Source of the DNA: a virus | Strand: one strand, 5' to 3' | DNA length: 56,142 bases | IMG/VR virus record: IMGVR_UViG_3300013131_000050 | Coordinates: 1-56,142 of that record | Part shown: positions 1-56,142 of the stretch, one piece after another | Position numbering within the stretch: position 1 is the first letter of the stretch | Layout of the letters: every line of letters starts with the position of its first letter | Position numbers and translations under genes: made by a program | The notes under the pieces: model-generated | What the model saw: only the letters and a program-made list of their open reading frames with translations | Database searches by the model: none | Told to the model about the DNA's origin: nothing

Positions 1-16
1 AATTCCTGGAATAAAA

Positions 17-679
17 TCACTCATTTTCAGAATCAATTTCTTCTGTTGAGTTGATAATATCATCTATTTCTGATTCAATATCTTCACTATCTCCGTACTG
101 AAATATTCCATTGATCACTTTTTCATCCATCTCTTTAAGAACTGGATCTAAAACTTCAGGTGTAAATAAATCAGTGAGTTTAACCACATCGTTTAGGTGT
201 CTTACGGCTAGGCCTCTTGCGGTTTCCGAAGGTTGGAAGTATACAGTAACTTCGCCTTTGTCTGTATTGTAGGTATGTTCTCTGCAATTTTCTTTATCAG
301 AAGGAGAAAGCTTTTCATAATCTTTCTGATTGATAAATTTACCTCTTTGAATACCACAATTATCCCAACTGATATAATCTTGTAGTCCTACGTAAGGATT
401 CATTCCTTTATTGAAGTCAATCCAAAATTTAACAGGAGTTGGTTTAGCAAATCTGTTTTTGTTAGGCTTTGCTGTTACGATAATTCCAGTAGCATTACCT
501 TCTGAAAGTTTTGCTTTACCTAAAAACAAGATGATTGAAGCCGCATACTCGGGACCTGTGTTGTGATTGACTACACCATTAGAACTGATGTAGTGCTGAG
601 CAGATTCTACAGTAAGATCTCTTACTTTAGTAGAGCCTAATGACTTTATGCTCTTTACTTTCAATTTTTTGTATTGCAT
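17..679 (-). CDS. uvsX: Split-intein C-fragment fused to the C-terminal part of UvsX recombinase
   Basis: The 220-residue product has two parts. Residues 1-40 are an intein C-terminal fragment ending in VVNHN, with the usual penultimate His and terminal Asn. Residue 41 (Thr, codon 557-559) is the +1 extein nucleophile and begins TGPEYAAS, the continuation of the UvsX/RecA core after loop L2. Residues 41-220 are the rest of UvsX, with an acidic C-terminal tail. Joined to the 221-residue N-extein, the spliced protein would be 401 residues, close to T4 UvsX (391). The start overlaps the upstream endonuclease gene by 53 nt and no Shine-Dalgarno sequence is visible, so translation may be coupled. 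The intein/extein boundary is clear in the sequence; trans-splicing activity is inferred from the family. Confidence 0.9.
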   Translation of the reverse strand: MQYKKLKVKSIKSLGSTKVRDLTVESAQHYISSNGVVNHNTGPEYAASIILFLGKAKLSEGNATGIIVTAKPNKNRFAKPTPVKFWIDFNKGMNPYVGLQDYISWDNCGIQRGKFINQKDYEKLSPSDKENCREHTYNTDKGEVTVYFQPSETARGLAVRHLNDVVKLTDLFTPEVLDPVLKEMDEKVINGIFQYGDSEDIESEIDDIINSTEEIDSENE

Positions 680-1910
680 GTTTTATTTGTTTAATTAATT
701 CATGTTGATTGTTTTCGTCTGAAAATTTATCAGAAATTCTGATCATACCTAGAATATCTGATCTTTTTTCTAATATAAGATTTTCTCTCCATTCGTCATA
801 TTTAAGTTCTAGTCGACTATGCCAATATAAACCATCATATTCTATGAGAATAATTCCTCTAGTAGACTTGTAATATCCATCGCATTTGAAAGATCTTTTG
901 ATGTCTTCTTCTAGAATGTTTATACAAAAACTTTCATGTATAATTTCTAATTCTTTAAGTCTTTCAAAAAATTTAACCTCTCCCTTGGAAACTTTACCAA
1001 AAAATGAAGAATATAACTCTGGATTTTCTCTAATAAATGATTCTACTCTTGTGCTTATTTTCTTTTTTGCTTCTATCCATTCTTCTTCTGTATCATAAAA
1101 ATGACGACTGGAAGGATTTCTCTTAAGAACTTCAAGTCTTGCGTCTTCTTCCGAATACCCTCTTTCTAACCAGAAATCTTTGCTCCAAATAGATCTTGTA
1201 TTTTTATTAGTTTCCCAACCCTTCTTTGAAATTCTAGATTGTATTGTTGCTATCTTCGTCTCGGCATCAGTTTCGCTTAGACCTCTCTTCATCCAATATG
1301 ATTTAGATAGATGAGATCTTTCTCTTTGTATCTCTGATATTTTTTGTCGAGATTCTTCTTCGGACCAACCTCGACCGGTCCAATACTCCAAAGAACAGTT
1401 AGATTTTCTGCCAGGTGTCGAATATATGTAACTTCTTATCCAATTACCACCGATAACACTTTGTTTTTCAGTAAAAGGCTTTTCAAGTTTCAGATAGTTG
1501 GAATACAGCATTTCTAAATAATCTTTATTTTCCCAATTGATGTCTTTAGTCCATCTGGTCAAACTTTTTAAAATCTTTTCTATAAAGTACTGATATTCCA
1601 TAGTATCTTGTGGTGGTTATTCCACCACTTGATTTATATATTCACTCTCTTTAAGATTTTTTACTGAAACCCAGCCTTCTTCGATTGCCCAGTCATCTTC
1701 ATCTTCTCCGATATAAAATCTATGATCCTCTGAACATATAATTTTTGTACCATCTTCAAATTCAACTTCGTACGACTCTTTTTCAAATTCCCAGGTTTGT
1801 AAAACTTCTTTATCGCCAATTAGAGTTTTAATTAGATCTCCAGCCTGTACTTCATCGATTCTCTTACAAGAACCATCTGACATAATAATTAGACTGTCTG
1901 GTGCTAGACA
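560..1910 (-). mobile_element. Split-intein/homing-endonuclease cassette interrupting uvsX
   Basis: The insertion runs from the first intein codon (Cys222 of the upstream ORF, 1908-1910) to the last (Asn40 of the downstream ORF, 560-562). It contains a 97-residue IntN (1620-1910), a stop codon, a free-standing endonuclease gene and a 40-residue IntC (560-679). IntN shows block A (CLAPDSL) and a block-B-like motif (ICSEDHRFYI, with Ser281 and His284 in the T-x-x-H positions). IntC ends in HN. The site is the DNA-binding loop of a RecA-family protein, between GGG and TGP. This is the 'fractured gene' layout known from environmental phage DNA: a split intein with a separate endonuclease gene between the halves. 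Confidence 0.88.
627..1601 (-). CDS. Free-standing Vsr-like (EDxHD-type) homing endonuclease
   Basis: The 324-residue protein lies between the two halves of uvsX. The C-terminal region (about 205-300) looks like a very-short-patch-repair/PD-(D/E)XK-like nuclease. It has GEVKFFERL (Glu208), FKCDGYY (Asp241), IEYDGLYWHS (Glu254, Asp256, His261) and further basic residues. Three diverged repeats at about 70-94, 99-123 and 140-162 follow a pattern of YW or FW, then RG, then SEE/SET and Ala or Ser, and are probably DNA-binding modules. The gene starts 15 nt after the stop of UvsX-IntN and overlaps the IntC ORF by 53 nt. By family precedent it cuts intein-free uvsX alleles and promotes homing; the target site is not visible here because the cassette occupies it. 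Confidence 0.82.
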   Translation of the reverse strand: MEYQYFIEKILKSLTRWTKDINWENKDYLEMLYSNYLKLEKPFTEKQSVIGGNWIRSYIYSTPGRKSNCSLEYWTGRGWSEEESRQKISEIQRERSHLSKSYWMKRGLSETDAETKIATIQSRISKKGWETNKNTRSIWSKDFWLERGYSEEDARLEVLKRNPSSRHFYDTEEEWIEAKKKISTRVESFIRENPELYSSFFGKVSKGEVKFFERLKELEIIHESFCINILEEDIKRSFKCDGYYKSTRGIILIEYDGLYWHSRLELKYDEWRENLILEKRSDILGMIRISDKFSDENNQHELIKQIKHAIQKIESKEHKVIRLY

Positions 1911-2573
1911 ACCACCACCTGCAACTTGCTTACTGAAAAGATCTTGTGTTTGATATGTGTGATTTGTAAACAAGAATGGGATTTTACATAGACCCATTTG
2001 TGTCATCAAGATTCTGAAAGTAGATTTGAGCAATTTAGCTCTTGTCATATCTGCTTTATCCGATCCTGATTTTGCATCATCAATCTCTTTTTGTGTTGCC
2101 AAGTTACCAGCAGAATCGAGAATTACCATGATCTTTGGAATTTCAATTCCTTTTTTCTTTTGCTCTAAAAGAGTATTTGTTAGATTTGTAATACTTGATC
2201 TAAAATCTTGAACAGTATTACAAGGTTCGTAACGAAGCTTAGAAGAATCAATACCAAATTTTTCTACTAGATCTCTATCAACTGCGTTTTCAGAATCATA
2301 GTAGATAGTGTAATACCCTAGTTTTTGAGCCTCTTTAATTCCGTTTAGAATTAAGAAAGTTTTACCAGTACCAGAAGGCCCCGCAATACATACAGATCTG
2401 TTATTAGGATATCCTCCGAAAAGAGATCCAGTTAAACATGCATTCAGTATGTAATTTCCCGTGGGAATATGATGATCTACTGCTGATACTTCGCTTTTAT
2501 CAAGAGTGTCACCATACGTTGAGATCTTAGACATTTCTTTGTTTAAGTCTTCGAATGAAAATGTTTTTGCCAT
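1617..2573 (-). CDS. uvsX: N-terminal part of UvsX recombinase fused to split-intein N-fragment
   Basis: The product is 318 residues. Residues 1-221 are the N-terminal core of the RecA-like phage recombinase UvsX, with Walker A GPSGTGKT at 65-72 and a Walker B strand IMVILDSAG at about 148-156. Residues 222-318 are the intein N-fragment, beginning with the catalytic Cys222. The extein breaks off after SKQVAGGG, which is loop L2, the DNA-contacting loop. Neither half is a functional recombinase alone, so homologous recombination and repair should depend on trans-splicing with the product of 17-679. The gene starts 6 nt after the stop of the polymerase C-half and probably belongs to the gp45-gp43B transcript. 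Confidence 0.92.
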   Translation of the reverse strand: MAKTFSFEDLNKEMSKISTYGDTLDKSEVSAVDHHIPTGNYILNACLTGSLFGGYPNNRSVCIAGPSGTGKTFLILNGIKEAQKLGYYTIYYDSENAVDRDLVEKFGIDSSKLRYEPCNTVQDFRSSITNLTNTLLEQKKKGIEIPKIMVILDSAGNLATQKEIDDAKSGSDKADMTRAKLLKSTFRILMTQMGLCKIPFLFTNHTYQTQDLFSKQVAGGGCLAPDSLIIMSDGSCKRIDEVQAGDLIKTLIGDKEVLQTWEFEKESYEVEFEDGTKIICSEDHRFYIGEDEDDWAIEEGWVSVKNLKESEYINQVVE

Positions 2574-2579
2574 ATTTTT

Positions 2580-3716
2580 TTAAAAGAGTGTTGTTGTATA
2601 AATTAGATTTCTATCTAGAATAGGTAATCCCATTGCTGCAATAACTCGATTCATAGGATCGATTATTGCTTTTTCAAATTGCGCATCATAATCCACCGAA
2701 GGAGCAAATTCATAGGGATGATCTCCCGGTGGAAATGCAAATACATCGCATGCTGTGTCTTTACTTAAATACATTTTCACCTTTTCTGAATTTGCAAGAA
2801 GCTTGTATTTTCCTTTATGTGAACTATTATTCAAAAGATAATTATAATAGCCAGATGCTCTAACATGCATTGGACAGCCTGAAGCTATTTCAAATTCAGA
2901 ATAGTCGTTAACAATATATTTCTGATAATTCCCAATTCTTAAATTGAAACAGATATGCTCGATATTTGCAAGTTTAAATTCTCTTTTAATTTTTTTCAAA
3001 AGAGCAATCAAATCTGGATAATTTACTTTATCTACTGAAAAGATATATTTGATGATTTCCTTTAGCTTGTTTCGAGCAAAAAGCGGAGTACTTGATTGTA
3101 TGATTTCAAATCCTTTTGTACTTATTTTACTCAAGGCCTCGAAATGAAGATCTGGATCTTTCCACACAATATTTTGCATGTATTTCTTTTTGGCTAACCA
3201 AATTGCATTTTTGGCTATTGATTCAAGTTCAAATGAAAGAAAGTTATCAGAGTTGTTCTTTTTAGCATAAGAGCTAAGAACATTTTCAATATACAGCTTT
3301 AGTCTGATGTGATAAATCTTAAGAATAAACTCTTTTTCTGATTTATCCCAGGTGCATTTTTCAAGAACTTCTTCAAATCTAAGATAACAAGAGTCTGTAT
3401 CGATATAGATTACGATAGGTTTCTTTACTTCACCCGTTATCTCAATTCCAAGCTCCTTATGTACTTCCTTGTCTTTATGCCAAAAATCATGAAAATACTT
3501 GTTAATCATTTTTTCCGTATACAAGATCGCGTCTTGACCTTGCAGAGTGATTGTTTCCGCAATGTCCACATTAAAGAAATAAAACCACTCATTACCGAAT
3601 GCTCCGTAAATTGAGTTTAGAGTCAATTTAACAGCTTGTTCGTAATTGTAATACTTCTGAGACTCCTGTTCTATTTCTTTAAGTTGTCTTTTTAGATCTT
3701 CTATATCTTCTTTCAT
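2580..3716 (-). CDS. 43: DNA polymerase gp43, C-terminal half (fingers helix, palm motif C, thumb)
   Basis: This 378-residue protein is the second half of a family-B DNA polymerase of T4 type. It opens with a charged helical stretch (1-25). Motif B follows (Lys30 to Gly38, KLTLNSIYG), then motif C with the catalytic aspartates (YIDTDS, Asp106 and Asp108), then a KKKY motif. The C-terminus TTTLF could be a clamp-binding peptide. Exonuclease and motif A are absent; they are on the separate ORF at 7791-9197. The ATG overlaps the stop of the clamp gene by one base (TAATG), so translation is probably coupled to gp45. The two halves must associate to form the active site. No intein residues are present at either broken end. 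Confidence 0.93.
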   Translation of the reverse strand: MKEDIEDLKRQLKEIEQESQKYYNYEQAVKLTLNSIYGAFGNEWFYFFNVDIAETITLQGQDAILYTEKMINKYFHDFWHKDKEVHKELGIEITGEVKKPIVIYIDTDSCYLRFEEVLEKCTWDKSEKEFILKIYHIRLKLYIENVLSSYAKKNNSDNFLSFELESIAKNAIWLAKKKYMQNIVWKDPDLHFEALSKISTKGFEIIQSSTPLFARNKLKEIIKYIFSVDKVNYPDLIALLKKIKREFKLANIEHICFNLRIGNYQKYIVNDYSEFEIASGCPMHVRASGYYNYLLNNSSHKGKYKLLANSEKVKMYLSKDTACDVFAFPPGDHPYEFAPSVDYDAQFEKAIIDPMNRVIAAMGLPILDRNLIYTTTLF

Positions 3717-4468
3717 TATTCTTCGTCTATGATAGCTACAGCTACTGTTAGATAGGTGGCAGTATCTAGAGACTTAAATACAATTTTATTTCCGCATACG
3801 ACTACTTTGTAGTTTTCTTTATCTAGAAGAGGACTATACTTTTTATAGATTGTAACTTCTTCCTTTTCAGAATCCATTTCAACGGAGTGAGTAATGATGG
3901 CATCATAATTTTCACCTTTAATACTTACACCTCTAGAATCTGCATATAACTTATAAGTTTCTTTTTCTTTATCGAGAGAGAAAAGAGACTTCATCTTGTC
4001 TGCATGGATTGTTAAAAGTTCAAAAGAGAATTTCGAATCTGTAGTTGAAAATGCTCTCTTGGTTTCATCTTCTTTCATATCCATAAAGTTTAAGCTTGGA
4101 TCTGCACAAAAGAGTTTGATCTTTAGATTATCATTTTCAATGATAAAATCGCTGGCAATAAAATCATTCCCTACTTTATCGTAGATAATTTTTCCTGAAC
4201 ATTCTCCACCAAAATGAGAAAGAGCTTCTATAATCTTATTTCCATTGAAGAAAGAAACTTTAACTGGTTGTTCGGGCCAGGCTTCAGAATCAAAAAGATC
4301 AGAGGTCTTAACATTTACCAATTTTACGGCATCCCTTTGGGGAAGAAAGACTGAAGAAGATGTAACCTTTTCTCCAACTTTCATGAAAATGAACTTGTCA
4401 ATAGACAATAATTTCTTAACAAACAACTGAAATTCTGCAGTGTCTATTTTCTTAATTTTGATTTCCAT
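3716..4468 (-). CDS. 45: Sliding clamp gp45
   Basis: The 250-residue protein matches the T4 gp45 processivity clamp (228 residues) in length and strand pattern. The C-terminal domain resembles gp45 most clearly: an LLTIHADKMKSLFSL helix, a strand pair around YADSRGVSIKG, and a closing strand ending in a short acidic tail. It forms a ring on DNA that tethers the polymerase and, in T4, also activates late transcription together with gp55 and gp33. The gene follows a terminator at 4534-4562 and its own ATATATAAAAAA-type element. It is the first gene of the unit gp45-gp43B-UvsX(N)-endonuclease-UvsX(C). Confidence 0.85.
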   Translation of the reverse strand: MEIKIKKIDTAEFQLFVKKLLSIDKFIFMKVGEKVTSSSVFLPQRDAVKLVNVKTSDLFDSEAWPEQPVKVSFFNGNKIIEALSHFGGECSGKIIYDKVGNDFIASDFIIENDNLKIKLFCADPSLNFMDMKEDETKRAFSTTDSKFSFELLTIHADKMKSLFSLDKEKETYKLYADSRGVSIKGENYDAIITHSVEMDSEKEEVTIYKKYSPLLDKENYKVVVCGNKIVFKSLDTATYLTVAVAIIDEE

Positions 4469-4480
4469 TAGATATTTTTC

Positions 4481-4495
4481 TTTTTTATATAGTCA
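4481..4495 (-). promoter_or_regulatory. Candidate promoter/leader element ahead of gp45
   Basis: On the minus strand this reads ACTATATAAAAAAG, 12 nt ahead of the gp45 start and just after a terminator. It belongs to the recurring TATATAAAAA family seen before several genes here. Promoter function is inferred. Confidence 0.45.
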
Positions 4496-4533
4496 AAAAA
4501 CTATTAGTTTCAATATAGAATCATAAAGTTTTC

Positions 4534-4562
4534 AAAAAAAAGCCCCTGCTAAAGCAGAGGCT
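4534..4562 (-). terminator. Rho-independent terminator after the Hc1 gene
   Basis: In the minus-strand RNA a 9-bp stem (AGCCTCTGC with GCAGGGGCT, one G-U pair, loop TTTA) is followed by a run of eight U. It lies 36 nt downstream of the Hc1 stop and ends the nrdB-nrdA-Hc1 unit. Confidence 0.9.
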
Positions 4563-4597
4563 CTTTCAATTCAGATATGGTAGATTATTTAACTGAA

Positions 4598-4774
4598 TTA
4601 AGATGCATTCTTAGTATCTTGAACATCTTGACGCATTTCTTGAGCAAGTTTCTTCAAGTCTTGCATTGCTTTACGAATGCGAGTGCCCGCAGATTTGTTT
4701 CCTTTTTCGTAGAATTTTTCTACATCAGCTTCTGCTTCTGCGATCAACGCTTTGATTTTTTCGAATTTTTCCAT
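4598..4774 (-). CDS. Histone H1-like protein (Hc1 family, Bacteroidota type)
   Basis: This 58-residue protein reads MEKFEKIKALIAEAEADVEK, then FYEKGNKSAGTRIRKAMQDL, then KKLAQEMRQDVQDTKNAS. The core motif FYEKGN..AGTR.RK.MQ.LK.LAQE.R is the signature I know from the short Hc1/H1-like proteins found throughout Bacteroidota. In that family it is a small basic/acidic helical nucleoid-associated protein. Here it is a single complete ORF, 46 nt after nrdA and before a strong terminator. It points to a Bacteroidota host as its source. Possible roles are phage DNA organisation or interference with the host nucleoid; neither can be read from sequence. Confidence 0.85.
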   Translation of the reverse strand: MEKFEKIKALIAEAEADVEKFYEKGNKSAGTRIRKAMQDLKKLAQEMRQDVQDTKNAS

Positions 4775-4820
4775 GTTTTTCTTATTTTTTGTTTTATTTT
4801 ATAGTGAAAGTAGAAAAAGT

Positions 4821-6599
4821 TTAACCGTCGCAACTTACGCAATCAGGATCTGTTGCTCTTATTGCTATGTCACCTCTTAATACAGATTCAGTTCTCATAT
4901 AGTAGAGAGTTTTGATTCCCTGTTTCCAAGCTTCTAAATGAACTTGATTAATCCACTTCGGATTTGCTTGAGAAGGGAATGCTAAATTTAAAGAAACTGA
5001 CTGATCTACATATTGCTGGCGAATACCCGCTTGCTTTATAAGATCTAGCTGATTTATTTCTTTAAATGTTTTAAAGACATCTTTAACCCAATCTACCTCT
5101 TTATTTTGAATTGTGGTTTCAGATATCTCATTTGTTAGTTTTCCGTTTATAAATCCCCACTTATCTAATTCGCCGATATCTTGAACGGATCCTCCATCTT
5201 CGAGAATTTTGTCCCAAGTATCTCTATTATTAATTCCTATTTTGCGAAGAACTCTTTCTAATTCGGGATTCTTTCTGATAAATGTGCCTTTGGCAGTTTG
5301 TTCTGTAAATACATTTGCAGCCCATGGTTCAATTCCAGCAGAAACATTTCCTGAAAGCTTTGAATTTGAAACTGTAGGTGCAATTGCCATCAGGTGAGTA
5401 TTTCTCATACCCGTACCTACACACCACAAAGGTTCTCCGCATTCAGTAGCCATATCCCTAGAAGCTCTTTCTGCTTCAATTTTCATCTGAGAAAAAATTC
5501 TTCTAGTTTCAAACTGAGCTGGTAGACCTTCAAATGGTATGCCTTTCTGTTGTAGGTATGTATGCCACCCTAAAACTCCTAGTCCTAATGCTCGGCCCTT
5601 TTCGGCAGAACGAACTGAATTTTCAAAACCTCTCATATTTTTTGCTCTTTGTATGAATTCTTCCAAAACTCCATCTAAGAACCAAATAGCAGTGTAGATT
5701 AAATCAGTGTCTTTCCATTCATCGTACTTAGCTAAATTTACAGAAGACAAGCAGCAAACGAATGAGTGTGATTCATCTGTATGTAAAGTAATTTCACTAC
5801 AAATATTAGTCATGAACACTTTAAGACCGTTTTGCTTGTAAGCCTCTGGATTTTGCTTGTTCACATTACCTTTAAACATGATATAAGGTTCTCCTGTGGA
5901 TTTTCTCTTTTGCAGAACCTTACTCCACTTTCTTCTAGCTTCTGGATCTCCATCTTCAACCCTTCGCATAAATTTATCACCAACTACTACACACTGATGC
6001 AAATTTAAGGATTGACGATTTACGTCTCCCTTAGGTTCTCTAATTCCAATCCATTCATCAAAGGCTCCATTTTCAATATTCAGATTAACCGAGGCTGCTC
6101 CTCTACGTACTGAACCTTGATTAGTAGCTAAAATAGTTGAATCATATATTTTACAAAAAGGAACTACACCATCCGAAGTTCCGTTTCCTGTGATTCTAGA
6201 TCCAGCAGATCTAATCTGGTTAACTCCGACTCCTACTCCTCCACCGTGTTTAGCTAAAAGCATCATTTCTAGATTTTTCGATCCAATTTCTTGAATAGAA
6301 TCTCCTACATCTATACCAAAACAGGAGATAGGTAAACCTCTATCAGTGCCCGTATTAGACAAAACGGGGGTTGCTAAATTAAGCCAGCCTCTCCAGATAA
6401 AATCAAAGAACTTGCTAGCCATGTGCGGCTTCCCTAATCTACGAGCAACTGCTGTAGATACTCTCCAATATGCGTCTTTTGGGGTTTCTCCGGCTAGAAG
6501 ATACCCCTTAGATATTGTTTTAACATAAATTTCTGTGTTACCCCAAACTGGAAAATCAACTCCCAATTCCCAGCCTATATCATCTCCGTAGTTTTTCAT
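4821..6599 (-). CDS. nrdA: Ribonucleotide reductase class I large subunit NrdA
   Basis: The 592-residue protein makes deoxyribonucleotides from ribonucleoside diphosphates together with NrdB. Catalytic features are present: Cys93 (SCFGID) and Cys282 as the active-site redox pair, the radical site NxCxE (Asn265, Cys267, Glu269), the tyrosine pair in TLYYMRTES, and a C-terminal redox pair in DPDCVSCDG. It is much shorter than E. coli NrdA (761 residues). The N-terminus goes almost directly into the ten-stranded barrel region, so the allosteric ATP-cone is missing and dATP shut-off is not expected. It lies 9 nt downstream of nrdB. Confidence 0.96.
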   Translation of the reverse strand: MKNYGDDIGWELGVDFPVWGNTEIYVKTISKGYLLAGETPKDAYWRVSTAVARRLGKPHMASKFFDFIWRGWLNLATPVLSNTGTDRGLPISCFGIDVGDSIQEIGSKNLEMMLLAKHGGGVGVGVNQIRSAGSRITGNGTSDGVVPFCKIYDSTILATNQGSVRRGAASVNLNIENGAFDEWIGIREPKGDVNRQSLNLHQCVVVGDKFMRRVEDGDPEARRKWSKVLQKRKSTGEPYIMFKGNVNKQNPEAYKQNGLKVFMTNICSEITLHTDESHSFVCCLSSVNLAKYDEWKDTDLIYTAIWFLDGVLEEFIQRAKNMRGFENSVRSAEKGRALGLGVLGWHTYLQQKGIPFEGLPAQFETRRIFSQMKIEAERASRDMATECGEPLWCVGTGMRNTHLMAIAPTVSNSKLSGNVSAGIEPWAANVFTEQTAKGTFIRKNPELERVLRKIGINNRDTWDKILEDGGSVQDIGELDKWGFINGKLTNEISETTIQNKEVDWVKDVFKTFKEINQLDLIKQAGIRQQYVDQSVSLNLAFPSQANPKWINQVHLEAWKQGIKTLYYMRTESVLRGDIAIRATDPDCVSCDG

Positions 6600-6608
6600 T
6601 TCTATTTT

Positions 6609-7601
6609 TTAAAATATATCTTCCCAATCTTCTCCTTCACCGGCTTTTGAATAGTCGGTAGGTCTTAATGCAAAAAAGTCAGTGTGTGTTAATCCTCCAG
6701 TTAGATGATAAAACCATTCTAACTGATCTGCAGATACTTTATCATATTCAAAATGAGGTTCATATCCAAGCTCTACCAGTTTTTCATTGGCTCTTTTAAG
6801 AATAAAGTGCTTTAGATCTTCAGCTTTAAGATTCTCTAAATCTCCCATTTCGAACATTTTGTCAATAAATTTATGTTCAAGATCTACAATCAATTCCGCA
6901 GCTTCGATAACCTGATACATTACATTCTTTTTTAGATCAGGATATTCATCACACATATGACGAAATAATTGACAACCCATTCTAGAATGTAAAGATTCAT
7001 CTCTAACGCTCCACTTCATCTGTTGTCCTATTCCCTTAAGAAGATTTCTCATCTGAAAAGAATATAAAACAGCAAATGATGAATATAAAGAAACTCCTTC
7101 GGCAAAAGCAGAAAAGATAGCTAAAGATCTGGCAACATCATTTCTTGCGTCTTTATTCCATTTAAGATCTTCATAATTATACTCTGCCTTAGTAGAAACT
7201 AAAAGTTCGAACTTTTCGGATGTTGCGGGTTCATGCAAGAATGCTTCAAAGTCTTCTAAACCTAGAGTTTCATTTAAATATGAATATGCAGTGGCATGGA
7301 TTGTTTCTTGTGAACCAAACATCATAGCCATGTGCTTGATTTCATGTTTCGGAAACCAGTTAGTTACCATTCCTGTCCAATAATCAGAAACTGCACATTC
7401 AGTTTGAGCGAAGCCCAAGAGAATATTTCCTACCAGATTCTTTTCGTGTGGTGCAAGATTCTCATTCCAATCTTTAACATCCCCCTGCATTGGAATTTCG
7501 GTGTGAAGCCAGAAACTCTGAGCCTGTAAAAGCCATCCATCCGTAAAGTAAGCCGGATATTCAAAAGGCTTAAAAGCTACTCTGTTGTCAAATAATCCCA
7601 T
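6609..7601 (-). CDS. nrdB: Ribonucleotide reductase class I small subunit NrdB
   Basis: The 330-residue ferritin-like R2 subunit carries the di-iron/tyrosyl radical centre. Likely metal ligands are Glu68 (QTECAV), Glu99 and His102 (ETIH), Glu168 (FAEGV) and Glu202 with His205 (DESLH). Tyr106, four residues after His102, is in the radical-tyrosine position. The C-terminal EGEDWEDIF resembles the tail that docks R2 to NrdA. It is followed immediately by nrdA, so the two subunits are made from one transcript. A 189-nt gap with a perfect hairpin separates it from the polymerase N-half upstream. Confidence 0.96.
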   Translation of the reverse strand: MGLFDNRVAFKPFEYPAYFTDGWLLQAQSFWLHTEIPMQGDVKDWNENLAPHEKNLVGNILLGFAQTECAVSDYWTGMVTNWFPKHEIKHMAMMFGSQETIHATAYSYLNETLGLEDFEAFLHEPATSEKFELLVSTKAEYNYEDLKWNKDARNDVARSLAIFSAFAEGVSLYSSFAVLYSFQMRNLLKGIGQQMKWSVRDESLHSRMGCQLFRHMCDEYPDLKKNVMYQVIEAAELIVDLEHKFIDKMFEMGDLENLKAEDLKHFILKRANEKLVELGYEPHFEYDKVSADQLEWFYHLTGGLTHTDFFALRPTDYSKAGEGEDWEDIF

Positions 7602-7669
7602 GTGTATTTTAGTGTTTTTTTATCTTTTGTTTTTTAAAAACTGCTTATTTTTAAAAGTTTCGGAGACAA

Positions 7670-7696
7670 GAAGGACCTCTTTGTAAGAGGTCCTTC
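7670..7696. other. Perfect 11-bp inverted repeat between gp43A and nrdB
   Basis: GAAGGACCTCT and AGAGGTCCTTC flank a 5-base loop (TTGTA). Neither strand has a good U-tract directly after the stem. It could be an atypical terminator after the polymerase N-half, an RNA processing site, or an mRNA-stabilising hairpin. The rest of the gap 7602-7790 holds no credible ORF. Confidence 0.6.
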
Positions 7697-7790
7697 ATTA
7701 GTCTTTTATATGTTAGATAGTAGACATAAGCAATTCTATTAAATTATATATTGGAAAAAGTGGGCCTATATAGATTAAAACCAATAAAAT

Positions 7791-9197
7791 CTAACTTATT
7801 TCCTTAATTTTTTTCCTAAGCTCATCTGCTTTAACTTCTAACTCAAAATACTTTTTCTTATAAGTTCTTCTCTGATTATAGAGATCTGTGAGAATATTCT
7901 TAAGTATAGAATCTTCCTTTTGATATACCGCACCAGTTACAGATACTATTCTATCATCACGTTTTTCTGAGTCTGCATTATTAGGATCTACCTTTTTAAT
8001 AAAAGAATCAGGACTGACATTTAATTGTCTCATGATTGATGGATATAGAGAAGCAAAGTCAAAACACGCCACGCCTCTGTGCATCCCGACTTCTGGTTGT
8101 TTTACAAAAGCTCCTGCATATTGTCCGTTTACTTTATTTGGTGAGGCTTCCCAGTCTTTGGCCATTACCTGGCCTTTGTCTAAGAATTTTCTGCATAAGA
8201 GAGACTCAGTTACCGCAACTGGTGATGCTGCTTTATAAATAGAAATTCGACAAAGATTTGCAATAGTTAAAGCAATCTCCATCGTTTTAATTTTTCTGTG
8301 TATGAGAAATACCAGACATGTATCAACTACGTTATAATAAACATATTTCTGATAGTCTTGTTCATAGAGATCTTGTAGAGATCCATTGTATTTAATTTTC
8401 TTATATCCAGTAACAACTTCGGCAACTGAATCTAGGGTAAAATTTTCTTTGATATCTACGCTTCTATCCCATTTTCGGTAAAGTTCCAAATAGTCCATCA
8501 CACCTACATGAAATGGGATTTGTTCTTTGCCCCAAACTGCACCAGTCGGAGAAGCGATCGAAACATCAATAGAAAGTTTCATTGCTCTATTTACGAGATA
8601 TTTCCAGTCAAAATTGATGAAATTCCAACCCGTCATCATTGGAAATTTTTTCACAAAAGTGTGGAAAAACGTATAAAGCATATCATATTCAGATGAAAAA
8701 ACTTTATAAACAAAGTTGAAAGAAAAATCTTCTTCTAAGAAATAGTCGTTAATAGATTCTTGTATTTCCGTTTGACTTTCTCTTTTTAAATCCTTTGTTG
8801 CTAAAACAATAGACTGTCCAGTTGGTGTAACGATTGCTATTGTAGTAACTGAATTTTCTGCCCTTTCTGGTTCTGGAAAAGAATCGGTAACTTCAACCTC
8901 AATATCTACAAAATAAATCTTTGGAAGACAATATTCAAAGATTTCGAATGATTCTTCTTCTGGTAAATTTTCTAAAAATTGAATTAGAGAATATTTATCA
9001 TAAGCTTTACTAGGTGCTAGTCTTACTGGTCGGCCATCCCAGTTTTTAAATTCTTCGGACTTAGCTTTGTCTTTTGAATTACATACGGCCCAGTTAGAAA
9101 CTGAAGGTAGCTTATATTTTTTAAAGGCAGTATTTCCTTCTTTATTATAGTAAGAGACGATAAGCTCTTTTCCTCTTTGTTCAATATCTAATAACAT
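7791..9197 (-). CDS. 43: DNA polymerase gp43, N-terminal half (exonuclease and palm motif A)
   Basis: This 468-residue protein is the first half of a T4-type family-B polymerase. The 3'-5' exonuclease motifs are visible: Exo I FVDIE (Asp98, Glu100), Exo II WNFINFDW (Asn192, Asp197) and Exo III YYNVVDTC (Asp292). The polymerase motif A follows (CFDFASLYPSIM, Asp380). The protein then runs into the fingers helix (YNQRRTYKKKYFELEVKADE) and stops 468 residues in. The other half, with motifs B and C, is at 2580-3716. The sum, 846 residues, is near T4 gp43 (898). Start and upstream stop overlap as TAATG with the dUTPase-like gene. Confidence 0.94.
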   Translation of the reverse strand: MLLDIEQRGKELIVSYYNKEGNTAFKKYKLPSVSNWAVCNSKDKAKSEEFKNWDGRPVRLAPSKAYDKYSLIQFLENLPEEESFEIFEYCLPKIYFVDIEVEVTDSFPEPERAENSVTTIAIVTPTGQSIVLATKDLKRESQTEIQESINDYFLEEDFSFNFVYKVFSSEYDMLYTFFHTFVKKFPMMTGWNFINFDWKYLVNRAMKLSIDVSIASPTGAVWGKEQIPFHVGVMDYLELYRKWDRSVDIKENFTLDSVAEVVTGYKKIKYNGSLQDLYEQDYQKYVYYNVVDTCLVFLIHRKIKTMEIALTIANLCRISIYKAASPVAVTESLLCRKFLDKGQVMAKDWEASPNKVNGQYAGAFVKQPEVGMHRGVACFDFASLYPSIMRQLNVSPDSFIKKVDPNNADSEKRDDRIVSVTGAVYQKEDSILKNILTDLYNQRRTYKKKYFELEVKADELRKKIKEIS

Positions 9198-9676
9198 TAG
9201 TAGCCTCTTTTCTGCCTTTCTCTATTCTCTTTGTTCTTACTCATATACATATTGTACATTTCTTGAGAAGTCATTCCAATAGAAGCTGCATAATTCATAA
9301 AAAAGTGAAGCATATCCACAATTTCAAATTTACATTCTAGTTGATCATTTTCACTTAAATCGGAAAACTTCAAAGATTCGAATTTTTTATAGTCTTTTTT
9401 CCATCTTTTCCAAATTGCATTTCCGGAACCATCTCTAATTCCACCTAAAGCATCTGTAGCTTCGTGAATTTCATCGATCATAGCATGAGTATTCATGTGC
9501 CAGAAATTCATAATGTCACGAAGAGACATATTCTCAAAATCATATTCATAAATATTTTTTTGAGTTTCTGCCTGTAAATTTAAAATATCGCCAAGTGTAT
9601 CGGTTGTAAACTGTGTTCTTCTTTCCCAAAAATCTTCGATATGAAGATCCGAGCATGTATTATCTTGATTTGCCAT
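9197..9676 (-). CDS. Dimeric dUTPase-like / MazG-type NTP pyrophosphatase
   Basis: The 159-residue all-alpha protein has the motif set of the dimeric dUTPase/dCTPase group. It has EIHEA (about 69-73), then WKRWKK, then EIVDMLHFFMN, and a C-terminal K..N..RQ..GY motif. Enzymes of this group, including T4 gp56, hydrolyse dUTP and/or dCTP to the monophosphate and keep uracil (or unwanted cytosine) out of phage DNA. It directly precedes and is translationally coupled to the polymerase N-half (TAATG), fitting a dNTP-pool role. Substrate choice (dUTP versus dCTP) cannot be decided here. Confidence 0.82.
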   Translation of the reverse strand: MANQDNTCSDLHIEDFWERRTQFTTDTLGDILNLQAETQKNIYEYDFENMSLRDIMNFWHMNTHAMIDEIHEATDALGGIRDGSGNAIWKRWKKDYKKFESLKFSDLSENDQLECKFEIVDMLHFFMNYAASIGMTSQEMYNMYMSKNKENRERQKRGY

Positions 9677-9726
9677 AAAATTTATATGACAACTCTTGCA
9701 ATTGTTTAACTGATATGTAAAATAGG

Positions 9727-9754
9727 CAAAAAAAGCCCGGAATTAACCAGGCTT
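9727..9754 (-). terminator. Rho-independent terminator after the 40-aa ORF
   Basis: Minus-strand stem AAGCCTGG with CCGGGCTT (one G-U pair, 6-nt loop) is followed by seven to eight U. The stop codon of the 40-aa ORF (9743-9745) lies in the loop, so the coding end and terminator are interlocked. Confidence 0.88.
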
Positions 9755-9865
9755 GATATTAATCTGGATATGGTTTCGAATATAGGATACTGGCCCTCTA
9801 GCTCTACCCAGGATAATCTCAGACTTCTCTTGAATAAACTCTTCAAATAACTTTAGATACTTCAT
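9743..9865 (-). CDS. 40-aa peptide resembling a capsid-targeting leader
   Basis: This short ORF starts with MKYLKLFEEFIQE and ends ...INIKPG. Its ATG overlaps the stop of the 543-aa gene by one base (TAATG), the same coupling used elsewhere in this window, which supports it being real. The start resembles the capsid-targeting leader of T4 internal head proteins (IPIII begins MKTYQEFIAE). Ile-Gln-Glu is a potential prohead-protease site of (L/I)xE type. Its stop codon sits inside the terminator loop. Function beyond that is unknown. Confidence 0.6.
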   Translation of the reverse strand: MKYLKLFEEFIQEKSEIILGRARGPVSYIRNHIQINIKPG

Positions 9866-55532: not shown

Positions 55533-56142
55533 TTAGCTTTCGTTTAATTTATCTTGTAGATCTTTAACTTGTGTCGAAAGATCTTTGATTGCTTCAATAA
55601 GAAGAGGAATAATTTTCTCATATTTAACTGCCATATATCCATTATCTCTAGTGGTAACAATTTCGGGTATAATCTTTTCGACTTCTTGTGCAATTATACC
55701 AACGTCATGCCCTTCGTTTTCGTGGATTCCAAACATTGGGATCCAGTCAAATTCATATCCGTTGATTTGTGATAATTTATCAAGAGAACCAGTAATTAAT
55801 TTTTTGTTTGCCTTAAGTCTTTCATCTGATGAAGCAAAAGCCACAATATCATTAGCTGCTCTAATTAATCCAGCTGTAGTAGGAGCAGTTACAGATCCAA
55901 CCCCGAGTGCGCCGGTCATAGTAACAGATGTACCGTTATCTGTAATTTGACTGTTTCCTACAGTGGTTGAGCTTGTGAACTTGACCACGGTGTTGTTGGT
56001 TCCAGATACGCTGACTGATGTTCCTGAAGTTCCGCTGGATCCACTTGATCCTGCAGCTCCCTGTGCTCCCTGAGCGCCTTGGTTTCCTGTTGCACCTTGA
56101 ACACCCTGTGCTCCTTGTGCTCCTTGGTTTCCTTGTGCTCCC
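55533..56142 (-). CDS. Collagen-like tail fibre with S74 chaperone domain (partial, 5' end off the window)
   Basis: The reading frame stays open to the right edge, so the gene start lies outside. The visible N-terminal part is a collagen-like repeat (GAQGNQGAQGAQGVQGATG) with a Ser/Gly/Thr-rich end. A beta region follows, then the peptidase S74 intramolecular chaperone domain: SDERLKANKKLITGSLDKLS, INGYEFDWI, then GIIAQEVEKIIPEIV. The C-terminus is a coiled coil (LLIEAIKDLSTQVKDLQDKL). In this family the S74 domain guides trimer folding and cuts itself off at the Ser before Asp-Glu-Arg-Leu-Lys. Confidence 0.88.
   Translation of the reverse strand, partial: GAQGNQGAQGAQGVQGATGNQGAQGAQGAAGSSGSSGTSGTSVSVSGTNNTVVKFTSSTTVGNSQITDNGTSVTMTGALGVGSVTAPTTAGLIRAANDIVAFASSDERLKANKKLITGSLDKLSQINGYEFDWIPMFGIHENEGHDVGIIAQEVEKIIPEIVTTRDNGYMAVKYEKIIPLLIEAIKDLSTQVKDLQDKLNES

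What the first reader, a model, noticed from the sequence alone, without database searches (positions are those of the whole stretch)
17..2573. Fractured uvsX: split intein with a free-standing endonuclease gene between the halves
UvsX is encoded as two ORFs, each carrying one half of an intein (97-aa IntN starting Cys222; 40-aa IntC ending HN with Thr as +1). Between them is a separate endonuclease gene rather than a nested domain. The break is in the L2 DNA-binding loop, so recombination would depend on protein trans-splicing. The predicted spliced UvsX is 401 residues. This 'fractured gene' layout has been described for a handful of phage genes; a recombinase example inside a Bacteroidota-type T4-like phage would be a new, potentially fast split intein.
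Basis: partly seen in the sequence, partly recalled or inferred. Interest (0 to 1): 0.9.

Follow-up and report, generated by a model that had tools for sequence, protein, structure and literature searches.

The report
Phage recombinase gene fractured by split intein
A phage's DNA-recombination gene is broken in two, each piece carrying half of a self-removing protein segment that should stitch the pieces together, with a likely gene-copying nuclease in the gap; the same layout occurs in many T4-like phages, in forms that suggest it moves, loses the nuclease and closes up again.

Summary
UvsX is encoded as 221 residues + 97-aa IntN (window 1617-2573, minus), a 324-aa nuclease-like ORF (627-1601), and 40-aa IntC + 180 residues (17-679). 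A near relative (L003, exteins 95%/93% identical) carries the empty allele: one 401-aa ORF with the same join GGG|TGPEYA. L004 carries the same intein unbroken; its model matches the gp41-1 intein best. The nuclease's C-terminal domain models as a Vsr-type fold (moderate evidence).

The novelty claim is too strong. Both halves at this site occur in 87 of 105 loci examined (a sample biased to intein carriers), 57 extein backgrounds among the 80 usable, including T4-like isolates annotated as two recombinase ORFs around a homing endonuclease.

The wider series is more interesting. Window versus L003 shows a diverged tract around the insertion site, as expected of co-conversion. In another lineage the intein DNA is 95.5-100% identical while exteins are 74-80% identical, and nuclease-deleted split forms and re-fused forms coexist. 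The gap holds different nuclease families. One contig (L008) has UvsX in three pieces with two split inteins (208+13+180 = 401).

Splicing, homing and speed remain untested at the bench.

The parts
1911..2573 (-). N-extein of UvsX, residues 1-221 (RecA core up to the GGG at the end of L2)
   Evidence: position relative to RecA/UvsX structures through relative L003
1617..1910 (-). IntN, 97 aa (1620-1910) plus stop codon; Cys1 and a block-B-like CSEDH
   Evidence: C222, G245, G253, S281 and H284 invariant in the 9 sequences of A3
627..1601 (-). free-standing putative homing endonuclease, 324 aa; three YW/FW..RG-type repeats in the N part (by eye), Vsr-type fold modelled for residues 202-324, conserved E254, D256, H261, D269
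   Evidence: relatives in Lak-B phages and IMG/VR
627..679 (-). 53-nt overlap of the end of the nuclease ORF with the start of the IntC ORF, in different frames
560..679 (-). IntC, 40 aa, ending His-Asn
   Evidence: H39, N40, T41 invariant in the 13 sequences chosen for A1
17..559 (-). C-extein of UvsX, 180 residues from Thr+1 (20-559), plus stop codon
560..1910 (-). whole inserted unit, 1351 nt, absent from the empty allele in L003

Best explanation
This is a fractured uvsX: a split intein that has invaded the recombinase gene together with a homing endonuclease gene. Three polypeptides are made: UvsX(1-221)-IntN, the nuclease, and IntC-UvsX(222-401). IntN (97 aa) and IntC (40 aa) fold together into a Hint domain. 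Cys1 attacks at the N-junction, the acyl group passes to Thr+1, the terminal Asn cyclises, and a native bond joins Gly221 to Thr222, giving a 401-residue UvsX. The nuclease cuts intein-free uvsX alleles in mixed infections, and repair copies the 1351-nt unit with up to about 1 kb of flank on each side.

Shown here by sequence: the anatomy, the empty allele of exactly the predicted length, an unbroken natural form of the same intein, lower non-synonymous than synonymous change in both intein halves, and a diverged tract around the insertion.
Inferred: the chemical steps (standard intein chemistry, recalled), that splicing occurs, nuclease activity, and the mixed infection.
For: Empty allele: L003 ORF 5362-6567 is 401 aa and reads QVAGGGTGPEYAAS where the window has its split. 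Unbroken allele: L004 has one 539-aa ORF with the intein in line, IntN 79% and IntC 75% identical to the window's.
Fold: the L004 intein model (pLDDT 77.2) gives gp41-1 intein first (Foldseek E 1.5e-08; VIA Z 14.3, rmsd 2.4, 123 aligned).
Residues: Cys1 and block-B His invariant in 9 of 9 sequences of A3; terminal His-Asn invariant in 13 of 13 of A1.
Selection: window against L004 pN 0.103, pS 0.752 (IntN) and pN 0.120, pS 0.551 (IntC).
Homing: window against L003 13.8% mismatch within 1 kb of the site and 5.1% beyond (Fisher p 3e-35); none of nine empty-empty pairs shows such a dip.
Viability: 8 of 8 annotated isolate records searched hold one uvsX N-half match each, and each is fractured.
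Nuclease: Vsr Z 10.6, I-Bth0305I Z 9.5 over residues 202-324.
Against: No splicing assay exists here. Pfam Intein_splicing is below its cut-off. The nuclease has no relevant Pfam, PHROG or PDB sequence match, its model is only moderate (pLDDT 71.6), Foldseek alone gives no hit at E <= 0.001 and no Vsr among the 50 rows shown, and in the VIA list proteins not described as nucleases (mitoribosomal, FASTKD4) are tied with Vsr.
The downstream half of the tract was read from L002, a different contig (539 of 541 columns identical to the window), and its fitted limit coincides with a 1148-bp block present in L002 only. The 1-kb cut was chosen after seeing the profile. The control pairs are far more diverged (about 50-88%) than the tested pair. 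A recombination tract of other cause would look the same. Synonymous change is near saturation in most comparisons, and the nuclease is the least constrained part against L005 and L015.
Confidence: 0.88

Rival explanations
1. The two UvsX pieces work as a non-covalent complex and the intein halves no longer splice, as in the split NrdA of phage Aeh1 or gp43A/B of Aeromonas phage 25.
For: Functional split enzymes interrupted by nucleases are documented in T4-like phages (PMC2988022, passages seen).
Against: Those cases are described there without intein halves. Here both halves keep the catalytic residues, show lower pN than pS, and exist in unbroken form in relatives. Unspliced pieces would leave 97 and 40 extra residues at the DNA-binding loop.
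Confidence: 0.05
2. Decayed remnant: the intein or the nuclease is dead and the phage's recombinase is lost or supplied by the host.
For: Nuclease decay does occur in relatives: L008, L009 and L045 keep only nuclease remnants. The nuclease is the least constrained part against L005 (pN 0.39, pS 0.63). The rest of this genome is unseen.
Against: All three window ORFs are open and pN is below pS in every part compared. In 8 of 8 annotated isolate records the single uvsX match is the fractured copy.
Confidence: 0.04
3. The gap is removed at RNA level by a nested self-splicing intron, so that a contiguous intein is translated.
For: Phage genes are often split by group I introns (PMC12363816, passages seen).
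Against: No intron family matched window 1-9800 in Rfam; the three matches up to E 1 are to sRNA families, far below their cut-offs. The IntC ORF has its own ATG inside the nuclease ORF, with an overlap of 53-62 nt in 16 of the 18 window-type loci examined, which suits separate translation.
Confidence: 0.02
4. Assembly or sequencing artefact.
For: Metagenomic contig; one end of the window lies 16 nt from the end of uvsX-C.
Against: The same layout is in isolate genome records and in many IMG/VR contigs.
Confidence: 0.01

Closest known systems
[quoted passage not shown] 2009, NAR 37:2560; not held, seen only as title and citation)
   Same: From the title and recall: host gene in two ORFs, IntN and IntC at the break, nuclease gene between. 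PMC12350094 (passages) cites it for the EDxHD/Vsr nuclease domain; the nuclease domain here models as a Vsr-type fold.
   Different: Host gene is uvsX; the nuclease N-part has repeats with no Pfam match. I could not read the paper, so cannot say whether uvsX is among its cases.
gp41-1 split intein
   Same: Best structural match of the unbroken relative's intein and the only intein among the 60 of 76 PDB sequence rows shown for the N-half; similar piece sizes (recalled).
   Different: Host gene is a helicase (recalled) rather than the recombinase; +1 residue here is Thr, Ser in gp41-1 (recalled).
Two-ORF recombinase genes of T4-like isolates (TG1, HY03, Pm5461, PspYZU05, Thanatos-1 and others)
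   Same: Same insertion site, homologous IntN and IntC, nuclease gene between.
   Different: Other nucleases: GIY-YIG in TG1 by its annotation and in Thanatos-1 by annotation and Pfam; 'homing endonuclease' without a family in several others. No feature shown in those stretches calls them split inteins; VmeM-32 has a 'HintC' domain note.
Lak-B phages of Prevotella (MK250020-28)
   Same: Both intein halves and a 26-28% identical nuclease between them.
   Different: Distant; records carry no annotation. Their nuclease ORF is broken when read with table 11; Lak phages use an alternative genetic code (implied in PMC12363816, passage; which codon is recalled).

Membership tests
Fractured gene with split intein | One host protein in two same-strand ORFs whose joined exteins equal the uninterrupted protein | tested here: met
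   221 + 180 = 401 = length of the L003 empty allele
Fractured gene with split intein | IntN with nucleophile 1 and block-B His; IntC with His-Asn and Cys/Ser/Thr+1 | tested here: met
Fractured gene with split intein | Free-standing endonuclease gene between the halves | tested here: met
   ORF 627-1601; nuclease by modelled fold of the C-domain only; activity not tested
Fractured gene with split intein | Ligation in trans | not testable with these tools
   needs co-expression
Hint / intein fold | Hint-domain structure | tested here: met
   for L004, the unbroken relative at 79/75% identity: gp41-1 intein E 1.5e-08, Z 14.3; the window's own split halves were not modelled
Hint / intein fold | Pfam Intein_splicing above its curated cut-off | tested here: not met
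   24.2 bits against 35.8; 27 bits in the genome scan. The match covers only part of the IntN half
EDxHD/Vsr homing endonucleases | Vsr-type catalytic fold | tested here: met
   Z 10.6 to Vsr 1cw0 (rmsd 2.6, 106 aligned), 9.6 to 3hrl, 9.5 to I-Bth0305I 3r3p (rmsd 3.3, 94 aligned), over 202-324; moderate only: tied rows include proteins not described as nucleases, and Foldseek's best is Bax1 at E 0.017
EDxHD/Vsr homing endonucleases | Conserved E, D, H, D residues | tested here: inconclusive
   E254, D256, H261, D269 invariant in 5 of 5; their equivalence to the EDxHD residues is recalled, not superposed
EDxHD/Vsr homing endonucleases | Sequence-level match to a described family | tested here: inconclusive
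   no relevant Pfam, PHROG or PDB sequence match; not every published model was available
UvsX recombinases | RecA core with UvsX-like sequence | tested here: met
   phrog_97 1.4e-52; UvsX structure 9gbg 8.1e-41

The most novel reading that the evidence does not exclude
The uvsX site hosts a living population of split inteins in T4-like and huge phages. The split element homes between phages with whichever nuclease it has picked up (Vsr-type, GIY-YIG, NUMOD3/HNH-like). The nuclease can then be deleted, and the halves can close up again into a one-piece intein. In at least one phage two such elements sit 13 codons apart, so the recombinase is assembled from three polypeptides by two trans-splicing reactions. 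Because UvsX (or host RecA) is needed for intron homing in T4, the element breaks the gene for an enzyme that copies it, which could tie its spread to unspliced-versus-spliced UvsX or to UvsX supplied by the other phage.
Probability: 0.55. Interest if true: 0.78.

Novelty: new member of a known kind. Interest (0 to 1): 0.62.

Why it matters
How split inteins arise and disappear is hard to observe. Here, at one site, one can line up empty, split-with-nuclease, split-without-nuclease and one-piece alleles. In one case the exteins of a split+nuclease form and a fused form are identical to two decimals (L098 and L088). The fused copies still carry the start region of the IntC gene (GAGGAAATTATG) inside the reading frame, so in that lineage the likely order is split, then fused. 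The loci also offer many native split inteins with Thr, Ser or Cys at +1, and a possible natural counterpart (L008) to the engineered three-segment trans-splicing of PMC12707363.

Tried and rejected
Intact second uvsX: looked for in the window's own record and in 16 records behind loci (11, 8, three in both); one N-half match each. The IMG/VR records are or may be fragments, so this is not final for them.

RNA-level splicing: Rfam on window 1-9800, no intron family.

Nuclease by sequence: the PDB profile search gave only an unrelated ribosomal protein and core proteins; Pfam and PHROGs nothing usable. The single-sequence viral-contig scan for the nuclease found no relative; the alignment scan found 11 loci.

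A recent homing event by DNA identity for the window's own intein: its nearest intein (L004) is 78% identical against 77% for exteins, so that test gives no sign; the signal is the flank tract against L003 only.

Weak points of my own scripts and sampling: the label 'GIY' pools several nuclease types; the L019 IntC end was misplaced by the script (that row was dropped); the ORF finder skipped nuclease ORFs that start in the IntN frame, the window's among them, so one search was used instead. One search looked at 18 chosen window-type loci, not all. The survey used the best 80 of 179 relatives and 15 regions opened from the 58 rows. The scan patterns are IntC motifs, one of them with Thr+1 built in, so neither the share of intein carriers nor the share of Thr+1 can be read from it.

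Literature: 10 of 10 searches used. 'uvsX' with 'intein' gave 9 papers; I looked at passages of three of them and found no split uvsX intein in those passages; the other six I saw only as a listing. Dassa 2009 is not held. Only open-licence papers are covered. One search was too broad to be of use.
Full report
OBSERVATION. The first (1617-2573, 318 aa) matches UvsX-like recombinases (phrog_97, 1.4e-52) and RecA (Pfam, 2.2e-13) and carries an intein N-part. Pfam Intein_splicing matches it at 3.2e-05, below the curated cut-off; the gp41-1 intein appears among PDB sequence matches at 4.4e-08. The third ORF (17-679, 220 aa) begins with 40 residues ending His-Asn and goes on as UvsX from Thr. Exteins of 221 and 180 residues sum to 401. 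The middle ORF (627-1601, 324 aa) overlaps the third by 53 nt.

THE EMPTY SITE. Among 16 IMG/VR loci found with the C-half, L003 is a near twin: exteins 95% and 93% identical as proteins. It has one uninterrupted ORF of 401 aa reading GGG|TGPEYAAS at the join. L006, L007 and L010-L013 also have abutting exteins, as do the huge-phage record L028 (one 445-aa ORF), Serratia phage BF, XaC1 and Lak-A1. The unit inserted in the window is 1351 nt (560-1910). In alignment to solved RecA and UvsX sequences the join falls after the RecA TTTGG, that is at the end of loop L2 (loop limits recalled).

THE UNBROKEN FORM. L004 carries the same intein as one 539-aa ORF; its IntN and IntC parts are 79% and 75% identical to the window's. 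Its model, built from an alignment of five natural one-piece inteins (A5; pLDDT 77.2), matches the gp41-1 intein best (Foldseek 1.5e-08, TM 0.73; VIA Z 14.3, rmsd 2.4, 123 aligned); many other inteins follow closely. Catalytic positions are invariant in the sequences I chose to align: Cys1 and block-B His in 9 of 9 N-halves (A3), His-Asn-Thr in 13 of 13 C-halves (A1; other loci have Ser or Cys at +1, below). Window against L004 gives pN 0.103, pS 0.752 for IntN and pN 0.120, pS 0.551 for IntC; the nuclease against L005 gives pN 0.391, pS 0.633. Synonymous change is close to saturation, so these are rough.

THE NUCLEASE. No relevant sequence match was found in Pfam, PHROGs or PDB. The model (pLDDT 71.6) has no Foldseek hit at E <= 0.001; the best is the nuclease Bax1 at 0.017, and Vsr is not among the 50 rows shown. 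The VIA second look puts Vsr first (Z 10.6, rmsd 2.6, 106 aligned), with I-Bth0305I, a homing endonuclease, at Z 9.5, just outside one unit of the top; tied with the top are a mitoribosomal protein (9.7) and level with I-Bth0305I is FASTKD4 (9.6), neither described as a nuclease. E254, D256, H261 and D269 are invariant in 5 of 5 relatives. PMC12350094 (passages) cites Dassa et al. 2009 for the EDxHD/Vsr nuclease domain, so this fits the fractured-gene kind. The nuclease ORF runs into the IntC ORF by 53 nt in 12 of the 18 window-type loci examined and by 56-62 nt in four (L009, L034, L035, L038); in the remaining two, L008 and L019, the frame is decayed or recoded and no such overlap is seen.

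HOW COMMON. tblastn of the C-half matched 58 of 50,697 phage records, intein-free ones included; the nuclease matched nine records, all Lak-B. A profile scan of IMG/VR gave 179 relatives, of which the best 80 were kept. Of 105 loci examined (L002-L105 and the window), 87 have both halves at this site, three of them IMG/VR contigs that by length are copies of isolates already counted; the other 18 are empty alleles or cut-off contigs. Of the 87, 80 are split and 7 in one piece. Of the 80 split, 21 match the window-type nuclease, 43 match another nuclease query and 16 match none. The sample was drawn with intein-bearing queries, so it does not give the share of intein carriers in nature. After dropping L019, the three copies and loci with too little flank, 80 loci fall into 57 backgrounds at 97% extein DNA identity: 50 split only, 5 one-piece only, 2 with both. 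Window-type nuclease matches, remnants included, occur in 15 of the 57. Of ten gap nucleases put to Pfam, Thanatos-1 is GIY-YIG/SegE-like with NUMOD3, five others have NUMOD3 (one of these, L102, below cut-off and with a weak HNH match), L087 has an I-TevI-like DNA-binding part just under its cut-off, and three have nothing (L063, L081 and the window-type L038). The +1 residue is Thr in most rows, Ser in L025, L033, L035-L037, L039 and L044, Cys in L045 (the L019 row there is misread).

HOMING. Two signs. First, window against L003: within 1 kb of the site 251 of 1819 aligned positions differ (13.8%), beyond it 432 of 8515 (5.1%), Fisher p 3e-35; fitted change points lie 955 positions upstream and 789 positions into L002 downstream. 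The upstream limit is inside the next gene, not at the uvsX boundary. Nine pairs of empty alleles show a flat profile or their higher values near the site, but these pairs are much more diverged than the tested one. Limits: the downstream side was read from L002, another contig (539 of 541 columns identical to the window), and the downstream change point coincides with a 1148-bp block present in L002 and absent from L003; the 1-kb cut was set after seeing the profile; a recombination tract of other cause is possible. Second, in the group L051, L054, L062, L088, L098, L100, L101, L103, L104 the intein DNA is 95.5-100% identical while exteins are 73.8-79.5% identical: 27 of 3160 pairs, from 6 backgrounds, pass intein >= 93% with extein <= 85%. 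The window's own intein shows no such excess against its nearest relative L004 (78% against 77%).

LOSS AND CLOSURE. In that same group (with L097) L098, L054, L051 and L097 keep a nuclease gene; L062, L103 and L104 have it deleted down to a stub and are still split; L088, L100 and L101 are one ORF, with the sequence GAGGAAATTATG that starts the IntC gene in the split forms now inside the frame. L098 and L088 have exteins identical to two decimals. In this group, then, fusion most likely came after splitting. L004 in the window's group could have either history.

THREE PIECES. L008 has UvsX in three ORFs: 208 residues + IntN-a; IntC-a + 13 residues (TQDLFSKQVGGGG) + IntN-b; IntC-b + 180 residues; total 401. 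No full nuclease is left in either gap. L118, a contig that begins inside IntC-a, has site b uninterrupted, so intein a occurs without intein b. L008 is a single metagenomic contig (found again as L117) and needs confirming. Engineered three-segment trans-splicing is described in PMC12707363 (passages); the wording I searched did not lead me to a natural case, which is weak evidence.

FUNCTION IN LIVE PHAGES. In 8 of 8 annotated isolate records searched, one uvsX N-half match was found, and it is the fractured one. Phages that were isolated and grown therefore carry uvsX only in this form as far as this search sees. T4 intron homing depends on RecA or UvsX (PMC2988022, passages), so the element sits in a gene that its own spread is likely to need.

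VERDICT. Observation confirmed; mechanism well supported by sequence and comparison, not by assay. As a kind it is known; as a host gene I found no description in the papers searched (call list under Tried and rejected), but the layout is already present, differently labelled, in public phage records.

Noticed in passing
L008:4212-6663: UvsX in three ORFs with two split inteins; middle extein only 13 residues; exteins sum to 401. L118 shows the first intein's C-part with the second site uninterrupted.
   Followed up: partly
L088, L100, L101 against L098, L103, L104, L062: Re-fused, nuclease-deleted and nuclease-bearing forms of one nearly identical intein.
   Followed up: partly
L120:3424-5546, L121:915-2464: UvsX split at a further site (VVG|C...HN|SYVP); L121 also has what looks like a one-piece intein in a replicative helicase ORF (2471-4264).
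   Followed up: no
L025:2597-4582 and L119:557-2554: Second intein at the P-loop of UvsX (SGC...HNSGKS); in L119 the L2-site intein is split without a nuclease.
   Followed up: no
window 7791-9197 and 2580-3716, minus: Family B DNA polymerase appears in two ORFs (468 and 378 aa; the second matches DNA polymerase families, the first judged by eye), separated by what look like ribonucleotide reductase genes; L003 has a 378-aa counterpart of the second.
   Followed up: no
L002:821-1968 and L003 from about 10398: Blocks of about 1.15 kb present in one of the two relatives and absent from the other; L002's block lies at the downstream end of the diverged tract and has a 180-aa ORF. The L003 block runs to the end of the stretch compared and may be an alignment end effect.
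   Followed up: partly
L021:948-1229: IntN-like match in the ORF annotated as DNA polymerase in Vibrio phage VmeM-32.
   Followed up: no
window 55533-56141, minus: Collagen-like GAQGNQGAQG repeats ahead of what looks like an intramolecular chaperone end, likely a tail fibre (judged by eye).
   Followed up: no
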